From Streptomyces sp. BK208 (GTDB taxonomy: Bacteria; Actinomycetota; Actinomycetes; Streptomycetales; Streptomycetaceae), in contig NZ_SOAV01000001.1 of the NCBI RefSeq assembly GCF_004364245.1, positions 930,001 through 994,000 on the forward strand: 64,000 nt of DNA, read 5' to 3'. How positions within the stretch are numbered: the first letter of the stretch is position 1; each line of letters opens with the position of its first letter. The notes beneath the pieces are model-generated. The model searched no databases. It had not been told where the DNA came from and worked only from the letters and a program-made list of their open reading frames with translations. A program made the position numbers and the translations under genes. This document shows positions 42,121 through 48,028 of this stretch, piece by piece.

Positions 42121-43146
42121 TCAGTGCTCGTGCGCGTGGGCCGGTGCCTCCCCGGTCGTCGTCTCCCCGGTCCCTTCGGCCGCCGCGCCGTGCTCGTGCG
42201 GTTCGTACCCGGGGATCGTGCCGTCCGGCTTCTTCACCAGGAACAGGCCCACCATCCCCATGTCGGAGTGGCTCTGCACGTGGCAGTGGTACATCCACGC
42301 CCCGGCGCCCACCCCCTCCCCCGCGACGACCTGGAAGCCGAAGGAGTCGGCCGGGCCCGTGATCTTGTTGTCGATGACGCGGGACGGGTCGTCGGGGCCG
42401 GTGAGTATGCCGGTGCGGTTGTCCGCCCAGCGGTGACCGTGCATGTGGAAGGTGTGGTAGTACTCGCCGTGCGTGATCATGACGATCTCGACGCGGTCGC
42501 CCACGGTGGCCTCGAAGTCGGGCCCGGTGTGCGGCTTGCGGTTGTTGATGGTCATGTCGTTGAAGACGATCGTGTGCGTGGCGTCCGGCAGCACGTCCCC
42601 CTTGCGGCGCACGATCACCGGACCGTACAGGCCGTTGCGGATGCCCCCGGTGCCGTGCTCGGTGCCGACGACGTGGTCGTGGTAGTGCCAGTAGCCCGCG
42701 CTGCCCGGCCGCCAGGTGCCGTCGTCGCGGCGGCCCGGCTTGTGGGTGCGCCACGTGTAGGTGCGGGTGCCGCCGGGCTCGACGTCGCTCCTGTTCATCG
42801 CGGTGCCGTCGCTGGAGATCTCGTAGTCCAGGCCGTGGACGTGCAGGCTCGCCCGCACGTCCATGGTGTTGGTGAACTCGATGTGCACCGTGTCGCCCTC
42901 GTTGAGCTCGATCAGCGGGCCCGGTACGGTCGCCTTGCCCTTCTCGAAGCCGTAGCCCATCTGACCGTCCGCCAGCTTCTCGGCGTACATCCTGAGGTGT
43001 CTCACCTCGCCCCCGGCCGGCGCCGTCCGCGCGGTGACGGCCTTGGCCCCGGTGGCCGCGCCAGCGACCTCCGGAGCGATGGACAACGATGTCGCGGCGG
43101 CCGCACCGCCCAGCAGCACGCGTCGGTTGAAGCCTCGCCTGTCCAT
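42121..43146 (-). CDS. slac: Two-domain small laccase (multicopper oxidase)
   Basis: A 341-residue secreted oxidase resembling S. coelicolor SLAC (SCO6712), which works as a trimer and reduces oxygen to water while oxidising phenols or metal complexes. A Tat signal with twin arginines ([13 protein letters not shown]) runs to PEVAGAATG. Copper-binding motifs are all present: [22 protein letters not shown] and [14 protein letters not shown], which holds the T1 Cys and the T2/T3 histidines. The His-rich tail (HEHGAAAEG and HAHEH) may hold extra copper. Start ATG 43144-43146 with GGGGAG upstream. It is divergent from the sugar dehydrogenase operon. Confidence 0.94.
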
Positions 43147-43265
43147 GCCGAACTCCCCACGCCGATAAGGAATGTGCGCAGTCTCAGGGTCTGATTGGCT
43201 GTGACGAACCTGTGGGACCGTACCGGTTGCCGACGGGTTTATCCACACTCAGGACAAAGTTCGTT

Positions 43266-45824: not shown

Positions 45825-48028
45825 TACGCCGACGAAGAATGTGGGCCGCGTTGTTGGCCGGCCTGCTGATGGTGCTCGGTCTGCAGGCGACGTCCGCCTC
45901 CGGACAGCCCGCGGCGGCGCCCGCCGCGGCGGCCGCCGACCAGGTACTGACCTGGACGGCGGGCGACGACATCACCAAGTACGTGTCGGCGCCCGAGACG
46001 GCGGTGGCCGGACCGGCCACGATCGTCTTCGAGAACAGTGAGGCCACCGGCAACACCACCGGCATGCCGCACACGCTGACCTTCATGACCAGCGATCCCG
46101 CGTACAACCAGGACGTCCAGCTGAACATCCTGGCCAACCCGAACGACGCCCAGGGCGGCAAGCACACCGCCGAGGTCACCCTCACGCCCGGCAAGTACAT
46201 GTACCACTGCACGATCCCGGGCCACGGCCAGATGACGGGCGTGCTCGTGGTCACCGAGGGCGGCGGTGGCGAGGACACCACGGCGCCGGCGACCTCGGCC
46301 GAGGTGGGCGGCACGCAGAACGCCGACGGCGCGTACGTCGGTTCCGCGACCGTGACGCTCGCCGCCACCGACGAGGGCGGCTCCGGCGTCGAGCGGATCG
46401 AGTACGCCCTCGGTGCCGACGGTGCCTGGCAGCCGTACACCACGCCGGTCGTCGTCGACCAGGTCGGCGAGCACACCGTGCGCTACCGCGCCTTCGACAA
46501 GGCGGGCAACGCCGCCGAGGAGAAGAGCGTCACCTTCGCGGTGGCCGCGCCGGACACCGACGACACGACCGCGCCGGAGACCTCGGCGACGGTCAGCGGC
46601 GAGAAGAACCCCGACGGGGCCTACATCGACATGGCGACGGTGACCGTCACCGCCTCCGACACCGGTTCCGGCGTCAACACCATCGAGTACGCGGTCGGCG
46701 ACGGTGCCTGGACGGCGTACACGGCGCCGGTCATGGTGCACGAGACCGGCGAGCACACCGTGCGCTACCGGGCCACCGACAAGGCGGGCAACGTCGCGGC
46801 GGAGAAGAGCGTCGCCTTCACCGTGGCCGCCGCTCCCCCGCAGGACACCACCGCGCCGGTGACCGGCGCGACCGTGGACGGCACCAGGAACTCCGACGGC
46901 GCCTACGTCGGCAGCGCGAAGGTGACCGTGAACGCCGCGGACGAGGGCGGCTCCGGCGTCGCCGCGGTGGAGTACTCGCTGGACGCCGGGCCCTACCTGG
47001 CGTACTCGGCCCCGGTGGTCGTCGACCGGGTGGGCCGCCACACCGTGGCCTACCGGGCCAGCGACAAGGCGGGCAACACCTCCGAGCCGCTGACCGTGAG
47101 CTTCACGGTGGTGGCCGGCGGGGTGCCGGCGCCGCCCTGCCCGGAGTACGACGAGCGCCTCACGGTGATCGTCGGCACGGTCGACTCGGGGGTGCCGAAC
47201 CGGGTCACCGACAACCGGTGCCGGATCAACGAGCTGATCGAGGACGAGAAGGAGTGGACGTCCCAGGCGCTCTTCCTCAAGCACGTCGGGCACGTCCTGG
47301 ACGCGCTGCGCGCCCAGGGCGTCGTCGACAAGCGTGAGGTCAAGGCGATCAACAAGGCCGCCAAGCAGTCGAAGATCGGTCTGCCCGGCCAGACCGAGGG
47401 CTACCGCACCATCATGGACGGCAGCCAGGACTCCTTCGCCAAGTGGGAGCAGGTGGGCGGCGGTTCGTTCGGGCTGAACGCGGACGGGTCGATCACCTCC
47501 AGCACCAGCACGCCCGGCATGGGCATGCTGTGGTTCCCCGAGCGCACGTACGGCGACTTCTCGCTGAAGCTGCAGTGGCGGGACGACGCGGCGGGCACCG
47601 CGAACACCAACGGCGGCGTCTTCGTGCGCTTCCCGCAGGTGCACGACCACCCGGAGGAGTCGCGCCCCGAGTGGGTCGCCATCAAGTACGGGCACGAGGT
47701 GCAGGTGTTCGACAGCCCCACCGGCGACATGTACAAGACGGGCTCCCTCTACGGCTTCGACCGGGTCGGCCTGGCCGGCGCGGGCGTGACGGAGAAGGGC
47801 ACCTGGAACGACTACGAGATCCGGGTGGTGGACCAGCACTACTCGGTCTACCGCAACGGCGTGCTGATCAACGAGTTCGACAACATCGGCGGCCAGACCT
47901 TCTACCCCGAGCGCTCGGACGACCCGGGCACCGACGGGCGCCGGTTCGCCTCCGGCTACGTCGGACTGCAGGTGCACAGCACCTCGGACGTCGTCTCGTA
48001 CCGGGACGTCCGGATCAAGGAGCTGTAG
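45821..48028 (+). CDS. Secreted cupredoxin / Ig-like repeat / 3-keto-disaccharide hydrolase-type (DUF1080) protein
   Basis: A 735-residue multi-domain exported protein. A signal peptide spans residues 1-38. Residues 40-148 form a cupredoxin with a complete type 1 copper set: H84, C130, H135 and M138 (MPHTLTF, YHCTIPGHGQM). Three repeats of about 90 residues follow (152-242, 248-336, 341-431), each starting DTTAP and containing GSGV..IEY..., GEHTVRYRA.DKAGN, like the OmpL47/FN-type Ig modules of carbohydrate-active enzymes. A helical linker (438-520) leads to a C-terminal DUF1080 jelly roll (525-735, GFDRVGLAGAG, NGVLINEFDNIGG) of the 3-keto-glycoside hydrolase type. The GTG start overlaps the upstream stop, so both are translated together. 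Confidence 0.88.
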   Translation: MIRRRRMWAALLAGLLMVLGLQATSASGQPAAAPAAAAADQVLTWTAGDDITKYVSAPETAVAGPATIVFENSEATGNTTGMPHTLTFMTSDPAYNQDVQLNILANPNDAQGGKHTAEVTLTPGKYMYHCTIPGHGQMTGVLVVTEGGGGEDTTAPATSAEVGGTQNADGAYVGSATVTLAATDEGGSGVERIEYALGADGAWQPYTTPVVVDQVGEHTVRYRAFDKAGNAAEEKSVTFAVAAPDTDDTTAPETSATVSGEKNPDGAYIDMATVTVTASDTGSGVNTIEYAVGDGAWTAYTAPVMVHETGEHTVRYRATDKAGNVAAEKSVAFTVAAAPPQDTTAPVTGATVDGTRNSDGAYVGSAKVTVNAADEGGSGVAAVEYSLDAGPYLAYSAPVVVDRVGRHTVAYRASDKAGNTSEPLTVSFTVVAGGVPAPPCPEYDERLTVIVGTVDSGVPNRVTDNRCRINELIEDEKEWTSQALFLKHVGHVLDALRAQGVVDKREVKAINKAAKQSKIGLPGQTEGYRTIMDGSQDSFAKWEQVGGGSFGLNADGSITSSTSTPGMGMLWFPERTYGDFSLKLQWRDDAAGTANTNGGVFVRFPQVHDHPEESRPEWVAIKYGHEVQVFDSPTGDMYKTGSLYGFDRVGLAGAGVTEKGTWNDYEIRVVDQHYSVYRNGVLINEFDNIGGQTFYPERSDDPGTDGRRFASGYVGLQVHSTSDVVSYRDVRIKEL

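What the first reader, a model, noticed from the sequence alone, without database searches (positions are those of the whole stretch)
42121..48028. Candidate extracellular sugar-oxidation and electron-transfer system
A Tat-exported small laccase is divergent from two translationally coupled secreted fusions: ThuA plus a PQQ-type sugar dehydrogenase, and a cupredoxin plus Ig repeats plus a DUF1080 (3-keto-glycoside hydrolase) domain. ThuA and DUF1080 are both tied to 3-keto sugar metabolism. A coherent idea is that the propeller oxidises a glycan, the cupredoxin carries electrons, the hydrolase cuts the keto-sugar, and the laccase passes electrons to oxygen. I know of no described pathway with this composition.
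Basis: partly seen in the sequence, partly recalled or inferred. Interest (0 to 1): 0.8.

Follow-up and report, generated by a model that had tools for sequence, protein, structure and literature searches.

The report
Laccase-linked secreted 3-keto-sugar gene trio
A well-known soil-bacterium laccase sits, in almost every species examined that has it, next to two secreted sugar-oxidation proteins under a shared DNA switch also found at genes for breaking sugars through a keto intermediate, which suggests a natural job for the laccase, although the electron path itself is still inferred.

Summary
The three genes are real and intact: the SLAC laccase (divergent), a secreted ThuA plus PQQ-GDH-type propeller, and a secreted cupredoxin, three Ig-like repeats and PF06439 protein. 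In 150 Streptomyces genomes, 91 of the 92 with the ThuA-propeller gene have SLAC beside it, divergent, 178-442 bp away; the exception ends at a contig edge. On an rpoB tree SLAC and the pair change together, with three genomes keeping SLAC alone.

The new finding is regulatory. A palindrome (window 43238-43258) lies between SLAC and the pair. The same kind of site precedes a ROK-regulator operon encoding an ABC importer, a Gfo/Idh dehydrogenase and a homologue of 2-hydroxy-3-keto-glucal hydratase, and precedes secreted propeller/ThuA/PF06439 genes elsewhere. This ties the trio to 3-keto-glycoside catabolism independently of domain names.

The electron relay (propeller to cupredoxin to SLAC to O2) is inferred: type-1 copper ligands and key PQQ-pocket residues are conserved, but this genome has no pqqC match, pqqC does not track the trio, and C3-oxidation by such a propeller is unproven. 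Which regulator binds the site (ROK, or the adjacent GntR) is untested. Observation confirmed; interpretation partly supported; a new variant of a known pathway kind.

The parts
42121..43146 (-). SLAC-type two-domain (small) laccase, Tat-type signal by eye
   Evidence: Full-length match to PDB 3cg8 at 742.6 bits; PF07732/PF07731
43238..43258 (.). Shared palindrome TTTATCC-N7-GGACAAA (extended form searched: CTTTGTCC-N7-GGANAAAG), proposed operator of the ROK-family regulator
   Evidence: Found with at most 2 mismatches in 23 of 23 fetched trio loci that include the gap, and in the window itself; only 4 sites with at most 1 mismatch in the 7.7-Mb genome, 3 beside ThuA/GSDH/PF06439 genes and 1 before the ROK gene
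43284..43312 (+). Candidate promoter of the ThuA-GSDH operon, TTGGCG-N17-TAGCTT
   Evidence: Conserved block in the intergenic regions compared; position; sigma-70-like by eye, not tested
43347..45824 (+). Secreted ThuA + PQQ-GDH-type propeller fusion (825 aa)
   Evidence: Pfam; AlphaFold model, mean pLDDT 80.8
43515..44183 (+). ThuA domain (residues 57-279)
   Evidence: PF06283 206.5 bits; fold match 4jqs
44214..45782 (+). GSDH-type beta-propeller (about residues 290-812); H459, R560-N561 and G591-P592 align with His144, Arg228-Asn229 and Gly247-Pro248 of Acinetobacter sGDH
   Evidence: Profile match to 1c9u, E 1.1e-18, with residue alignment; VIA Z 34.9 to 2ism, 28.2 to 1cq1; roles of the sGDH residues recalled
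45821..48028 (+). Secreted cupredoxin + OmpL47/Ig repeats + PF06439 fusion (735 aa)
   Evidence: Pfam and NCBIfam
45941..46255 (+). Cupredoxin domain with type-1 copper ligands H84, C130, H135, M138
   Evidence: PF00127; ligands kept in 17 of 17 aligned and 23 of 23 fetched orthologues
46274..47113 (+). Three OmpL47/Ig-like repeats
   Evidence: NF047446, three stretches, 270.8 bits
47402..48019 (+). PF06439 (DUF1080) 3-keto-glycoside eliminase/hydratase-type domain (residues 528-733)
   Evidence: PF06439 111.4 bits; VIA Z 15.5 to 9fbe, 14.9 to 8tda

Best explanation
The trio is one secreted arm of a 3-keto-glycoside utilisation regulon. Shown by sequence and distribution: SLAC and the two-gene operon are a co-inherited divergent unit, share a palindromic site with a ROK-ABC-Gfo/Idh-hydratase operon and with other secreted propeller/ThuA/PF06439 genes, and carry the residues expected for a type-1 copper site and a PQQ-like pocket. 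Inferred: outside the cell the propeller oxidises a glycoside (probably to the 3-keto form, with PQQ taken from the surroundings or another cofactor); the PF06439 domain, held nearby by the Ig repeats, cuts the keto-glycoside by beta-elimination/hydration; ThuA acts on the keto-sugar in a way not yet known; electrons pass from the propeller to the type-1 copper of the cupredoxin and on to SLAC, which reduces O2; the released keto-sugar is imported by the ABC transporter and turned into a common sugar by the hydratase and Gfo/Idh enzymes; the ROK protein senses the sugar and derepresses all units. My estimates: functional unit 0.9; member of a 3-keto-glycoside regulon 0.8; ROK as the binder 0.7; propeller redox-active 0.6; direct cupredoxin-to-SLAC transfer 0.4.
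For: Co-occurrence: SLAC x ThuA-GSDH 91/4/1/54 of 150 genomes, p 9e-35; 91 of 91 shared cases adjacent and divergent. On a 60-genome rpoB tree the trio needs at least 8 changes on well-supported branches; in 8 independent pairs SLAC goes the same way in 7.4 on average and never the other way, median p 0.016. G048 keeps only C-terminal parts of SLAC and of the cupredoxin-PF06439 gene side by side, as after a joint deletion. Regulon: pattern hits 419 against 17 for the reversed control in 150 genomes; motif x ROK 106/7/1/36, p 2e-26; ThuA-GSDH x ROK 90/2/17/41, p 1e-20. Of 102 listed sites, 37 lie 100-160 bp before the ROK gene, 25 in the SLAC-ThuA gap, and 19 about 6.1-6.8 kb beyond ROK, the place where G000 and G006 have a propeller gene; of 12 further sites read, 10 precede secreted GSDH, GSDH-ThuA-PF06439, PA14-PF06439 or PA14-DUF7133 genes. 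In 79 named loci with a whole gap the site is there with 1 (71) or 2 (8) mismatches. Pathway: the ROK operon encodes a homologue of 2-hydroxy-3-keto-glucal hydratase 8ro4 (E 3e-40) and a Gfo/Idh enzyme near 6a3f, DgpA and sugar 3-ketoreductase. Copper and PQQ-pocket residues. Folds.
Against: No pqqC match in this genome; over cut-off in 18 of 92 trio genomes and 14 of 58 others, p 0.54, so PQQ synthesis does not track the trio. Characterised PQQ sGDHs oxidise C1 (recalled), and I know of none that makes 3-keto-glycosides. HHIP, which is not a dehydrogenase (recalled), has the same fold at Z 27. Other propeller genes of the regulon carry no cupredoxin or laccase domain in the genes scanned (their neighbours were not all scanned), so the relay is not part of every unit. 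One orthologous cupredoxin gene (G037) lacks PF06439. Three genomes (G058, G116, G147) keep SLAC without the pair. ROK and trio: of 8 independent pairs 5.3 go the same way, median p 0.06 only; 17 genomes with a ROK match have no trio, and two trio genomes (G113, G135) have none, though G135 keeps a one-mismatch site; 7 genomes have a site without ROK. 2 of 12 further sites read precede unrelated genes. A GntR-family gene beside ROK is conserved in the two other clusters checked and could be the binder. S. coelicolor SCO6710, probably the orthologue of the third gene, is described as putatively CsoR-repressed, a copper rather than a sugar signal.
Confidence: 0.45

Rival explanations
1. Same 3-keto-glycoside regulon, but no protein relay: the laccase oxidises phenolic aglycones released when the PF06439 domain eliminates plant phenolic glycosides, and the resulting quinones or radicals act as diffusible electron acceptors for the propeller, as in fungal sugar dehydrogenase-laccase cycles (recalled). 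The cupredoxin delivers or stores copper or is a side acceptor.
For: SLAC of S. coelicolor oxidises 12 of 23 phenolic test substrates, among them caffeic and ferulic acids and quercetin (PMC3918160, summary passage); the A. tumefaciens elimination pathway acts on the phenolic glycoside phlorizin (PMC10628242, abstract and passages); the propeller also resembles fungal AA12 pyranose dehydrogenase (Z 23.8).
Against: The cupredoxin is fused to the eliminase-type domain and its four ligands are kept in 23 of 23 orthologues tested, which fits a protein relay better.
Confidence: 0.25
2. A copper-handling unit: SLAC and the cupredoxin manage extracellular copper under CsoR, and the sugar domains only anchor the proteins to cell-surface glycans.
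For: SCO6710 is listed as a putative CsoR target and was at half its normal level in germinating cultures from copper-amended spores (PMC6414726 passages).
Against: No CsoR-type TACC-N7-GGTA site with at most 1 mismatch in the intergenic region; the shared site belongs with sugar genes; PF06439 and propeller key residues are strongly conserved.
Confidence: 0.15
3. The propeller is not a redox enzyme at all but a glycan-binding or lyase-like domain, and the keto-glycoside comes from another dehydrogenase.
For: No pqqC match here, and pqqC is uncoupled from the trio; HHIP shares the fold.
Against: Positions of the catalytic base and PQQ contacts are invariant in 16 of 16 aligned propellers; S. 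coelicolor aldose sugar dehydrogenase 3das was solved PQQ-bound (entry title).
Confidence: 0.15
4. Only conserved neighbours without joint function.
For: The locus is a stable part of the Streptomyces chromosomes that hold it; three genomes keep SLAC alone.
Against: Joint changes on the tree, joint remnant in G048.
Confidence: 0.04

Closest known systems
Levoglucosan pathway LgdA-LgdB1-LgdB2-LgdC and the A. tumefaciens GlycDH-OGE-HYD-Gfo operon (oxidation, elimination, hydration, reduction)
   Same: The regulon contains a hydratase homologue (8ro4) and a Gfo/Idh enzyme next to an ABC importer; passages of PMC7676230 and PMC10628242 read
   Different: Here oxidation and cleavage appear secreted and copper-linked, not cytosolic and NAD-dependent; the neighbouring regulator is ROK-type, in B. 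smithii LacI-type
Periplasmic LacABC + DUF1080 lactose pathway of Caulobacter (PMC9007349)
   Same: Extracytoplasmic sugar oxidation plus a PF06439 protein (passages read)
   Different: The oxidant there is the LacABC dehydrogenase; here a GSDH propeller, cupredoxin and laccase
SLAC small laccase of Streptomyces coelicolor (SCO6712, PDB 3cg8)
   Same: Orthologous enzyme, full length
   Different: No paper in my search listings joins it with these neighbours or with the shared switch (open-licence library only)
PQQ aldose/glucose dehydrogenases (2ism, 3a9g, 3das, 1cq1)
   Same: Fold Z 28-35; catalytic His, Arg-Asn and Gly-Pro positions
   Different: Long extra stretches, Cys-Cys before the catalytic His, N-terminal ThuA fusion; cofactor unproven
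3-keto-glycoside eliminase/hydratase and BT2157-type hydratases (9fbe, 8rr2, 8tda, 3osd)
   Same: PF06439 fold, Z about 15, 22-24% identity
   Different: Here fused to cupredoxin and Ig repeats

Membership tests
Two-domain small laccase (SLAC) | Full-length similarity to characterised SLAC with both cupredoxin domains | tested here: met
   3cg8, residues 1-341 against 1-343, 742.6 bits
Type-1 copper cupredoxin | His, Cys, His, Met ligand set | tested here: met
   H84, C130, H135, M138 in 17 of 17 aligned and 23 of 23 fetched orthologues; copper binding itself not testable
PQQ-dependent GSDH-type sugar dehydrogenase | Propeller fold with catalytic His144, Arg228-Asn229, Gly247-Pro248 equivalents | tested here: met
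   invariant in 16 aligned sequences; other PQQ contacts (Lys377, Arg406, Arg408, recalled) lie outside the printed alignment
PQQ-dependent GSDH-type sugar dehydrogenase | Host supplies PQQ (pqqC present) | tested here: not met
   No pqqC match in own genome; 18 of 92 trio genomes. Not strictly required: E. coli Asd works in a host without PQQ synthesis (recalled)
PQQ-dependent GSDH-type sugar dehydrogenase | Measured PQQ binding and sugar oxidation | not testable with these tools
   Bench work
3-keto-glycoside eliminase/hydratase (PF06439) | Domain over gathering score and matching fold | tested here: met
   111.4 bits against 26.8; Z 15.5 to 9fbe, 194 residues, rmsd 3.9
3-keto-glycoside eliminase/hydratase (PF06439) | Activity on 3-keto-glycosides | not testable with these tools
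   Bench work
3-keto-glycoside pathway regulon | Downstream hydratase and 3-keto-reductase type enzymes under the same control | tested here: met
   common control is inferred from the shared site only
ROK regulon | Site co-distributed with the ROK gene and placed before its own gene | tested here: met
   106/7/1/36 of 150; 37 of 102 listed sites 100-160 bp before ROK
ROK regulon | ROK protein binds the site | not testable with these tools
   A conserved neighbouring GntR gene is not excluded
CsoR regulon | TAC-N9-GTA operator in the promoter region | tested here: not met
   0 of 8 window matches to TACC-N7-GGTA (at most 1 mismatch) lie in 43147-43346; operator from PMC3902906 passages

The most novel reading that the evidence does not exclude
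Streptomyces carry a secreted, copper-wired glycoside-cleaving machine: a propeller dehydrogenase makes a keto-glycoside, a cupredoxin-tethered eliminase cuts it, and the small laccase is the dedicated terminal oxidase that passes the electrons to oxygen, all switched on by a sugar-sensing ROK protein together with uptake and finishing enzymes.
Probability: 0.35. Interest if true: 0.85.

Novelty: new variant of a known kind. Interest (0 to 1): 0.62.

Why it matters
SLAC is a much-studied bacterial laccase (many PDB entries), yet the one SLAC paper I looked into does not use the word 'physiological' (passages of PMC3918160), and I recall no agreed cellular role. The stable linkage to a sugar-oxidation operon and the shared switch give a specific, testable role. 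If right, it adds an extracellular copper-based electron route to the oxidation-elimination way of breaking glycosides, and gives a regulon by which its substrates could be found.

Tried and rejected
Rejected: (1) PQQ made by the host as part of the system: no pqqC match here and no association. (2) CsoR operator in the intergenic region: not found with the consensus. (3) Rosetta-stone fusion including the cupredoxin: the 2267-aa fusion in another actinobacterial family joins ThuA, GSDH, PKD, CBM6, PF06439 and Ig repeats, but Pfam and a simple ligand-pattern search showed no cupredoxin in it. (4) Full-length relatives of the ThuA-GSDH protein in the phylum: 10 of 396 genomes at E <= 1e-130, 8 of them in the genus; SLAC was not searched in the other two, so no trio was shown outside Streptomyces. 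(5) G073 (no SLAC) and G120 (genes on two contigs) are contig ends. Led nowhere: literature combining these families (0 papers, 27 papers, 20 listed, only PMC9007349 relevant by its listing). Not resolved: whether ROK or GntR binds; ThuA's reaction; the PF06439 locus at C1:254034, fetched but not annotated. The cupredoxin and Ig parts were barely tested by fold search, so nothing is claimed from their absence there. The random-window control overlaps the site itself in many draws and is not used; the operator figure for L163 is invalid (gap cut by the contig end) and was replaced.

Sampling: 150 genomes drawn from a larger genus set. The 107 ROK matches include G120 (59% identity) and G145 (part of the protein). 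The site list was cut, so 102 visible sites were classified. Of the 20 'other' sites I read 12; 8 were not read. Two of those 8 (G114:C363, G017:C917) lie close to a GSDH hit coordinates. One further site lies 15 kb from ROK and was not read. Of the 2 exceptions among the 12, one had a perfect pattern match (G043 C41), so the pattern alone is not proof of membership.
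Full report
What is there. The window belongs to a Streptomyces genome (C1:930001-994000 of a 7.7-Mb assembly); the closest named locus returned is from S. ardesiacus, 96% identity over the third protein, though records of the window's own genome may be left out of that list. SLAC (42121-43146, minus) matches PDB 3cg8 end to end. Divergent from it, 43347-45824 encodes a secreted ThuA-GSDH fusion, and 45821-48028 a secreted cupredoxin, three OmpL47/Ig repeats and PF06439 fusion. 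The two overlap by 4 bases.

Is the linkage real. In 150 genus genomes SLAC is in 95, the ThuA-GSDH orthologue in 92 (rows with E = 0; weaker paralogues were dropped) and the cupredoxin protein in 93. SLAC x ThuA-GSDH is 91/4/1/54 (p 9e-35), ThuA-GSDH x cupredoxin 92/0/1/57. In 91 of 91 shared genomes the genes are adjacent and divergent, gap 178-442, median 249. G073, the one genome with the pair and no SLAC, ends 311 bases past the gene. SLAC without the pair: G058, G116, G147, and G048, where the two C-terminal remnants lie side by side. An rpoB tree of 60 of the 150 genomes (26 with, 34 without the trio) needs 13 changes, 8 forced by starred branches; in 8 independent pairs SLAC goes the same way in 7.4 on average and never the other way (median p 0.016, range 0.008-0.031). 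Genomes without the trio and the exceptions were chosen on purpose for this tree. In 80 named loci, 79 are adjacent and divergent, one is cut by a contig end.

The shared switch. The intergenic region holds a conserved palindrome followed by a sigma-70-like promoter. In the own genome only four sites come within one mismatch of TTTRTCC-N7-GGACAAA: this one; one before a GSDH-PKD-CBM6-ThuA-PF06439 gene on C11; one before a GSDH-PKD-CBM6-lectin gene on C13, followed by a ThuA-PF06439-lectin gene; and one before a ROK gene on C11. After the ROK gene come ABC ATPase, permease, a binding protein, a Gfo/Idh enzyme and a xylose-isomerase-like protein, then the secreted gene. The xylose-isomerase-like enzyme matches 2-hydroxy-3-keto-glucal hydratase 8ro4 at E 3e-40, and the Gfo/Idh enzyme matches 6a3f at E 1.5e-95 and, more weakly, DgpA and sugar 3-ketoreductase. 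Two of the four steps of the oxidation-elimination-hydration-reduction pathways of PMC7676230 and PMC10628242 (passages) are thus recognisable there.

Testing the switch. With the pattern CTTTGTCC-N7-GGANAAAG (at most 1 mismatch) 113 of 150 genomes have sites, 419 hits in all (both strands counted) against 17 for the reversed pattern; ROK at E <= 1e-90 is in 107; motif x ROK is 106/7/1/36. Of 102 listed sites, 37 lie 100-160 bp before ROK, 25 in the SLAC-ThuA gap, 19 about 6.1-6.8 kb past ROK, 1 at 15 kb, 20 elsewhere. Of these 20 I read 12: 10 precede GSDH, GSDH-ThuA-PF06439, PA14-PF06439 or PA14-DUF7133 genes; 2 do not (GH76/BrkB; sulfite-reductase/PfkB). Fetched SLAC loci without the pair have no site with at most 2 mismatches (4 of 4: L032, L033, L034, L036). 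Of the two trio genomes without a ROK match, G113 has a site with 2 mismatches and G135 one with 1, so loss of ROK does not clearly erase the site. In 79 named loci the gap holds the site with 1 mismatch (71) or 2 (8). A GntR-family gene beside ROK is conserved in the two other clusters checked, so the binder is not settled.

Chemistry. The propeller model fits PQQ dehydrogenases at Z 28-35; the profile aligns H459, R560-N561 and G591-P592 with the sGDH catalytic base and PQQ/Ca contacts (roles recalled), and a Cys-Cys pair precedes H459 in the trio orthologues shown. Against it, pqqC has no match here and is found in 18 of 92 trio genomes versus 14 of 58 others, p 0.54. The type-1 copper ligands are kept in 23 of 23 fetched orthologues. 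The PF06439 part fits 9fbe, 8rr2 and BT2157-type structures at Z about 15; its model is of modest confidence (mean pLDDT 70.8, pTM 0.33).

Literature. A search for SCO6710/SCO6711 found one paper, which lists SCO6710 as a glycosyl hydrolase putatively repressed by CsoR (passages); that it is the orthologue of the third gene is inferred from its number and description, not tested. No paper held four of six terms for these families. The library holds open-licence papers only, so absence in print is not shown beyond these searches.

Judgement. The sugar half of the interpretation gains independent support from the shared site; the electron-relay half remains a good hypothesis with one clear difficulty, the cofactor.

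Noticed in passing
window 41853-42080: Tandem array of about 8 copies of a 29-bp GC-rich unit between the LacI-type gene and the end of SLAC.
   Followed up: no
L035 (G048 C83:33254-34066): SLAC C-terminal half directly beside the C-terminus of the cupredoxin-PF06439 gene: looks like the remnant of a joint deletion.
   Followed up: partly
G129, G002, G021 ThuA-GSDH orthologues: In-frame stop codons reported inside otherwise full-length orthologues.
   Followed up: no
L029 5890-7011: Cupredoxin gene of G037 ends without PF06439 and is followed by a 252-aa frame with no Pfam match.
   Followed up: partly
L123 950-3493; L126 2-2998: The same palindrome precedes PA14-DUF7133 and PA14-CBM35-PF06439 proteins, widening the regulon.
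   Followed up: partly
L057 7764-9574: A GntR/FCD regulator and a KAS III-type gene lie just upstream of the ROK gene; GntR is conserved there in 2 of 2 other clusters checked, the KAS III gene was seen in 1 of the 2 fetched stretches.
   Followed up: partly
L036 (G144 C31): A second, solo SLAC-like gene at 65% identity without the pair or the palindrome.
   Followed up: no
L059 1438-8241: 2267-aa ThuA-GSDH-PKD-CBM6-PF06439-Ig fusion in another actinobacterial family.
   Followed up: partly
L125 3384-3406 (G043 C41): A perfect copy of the palindrome beside a nitrite/sulfite-reductase gene and a PfkB-type sugar kinase, unlike the other members.
   Followed up: partly
window 48048-50756: LigD-type primase-polymerase and an ATP-dependent DNA ligase lie just downstream.
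   Followed up: no
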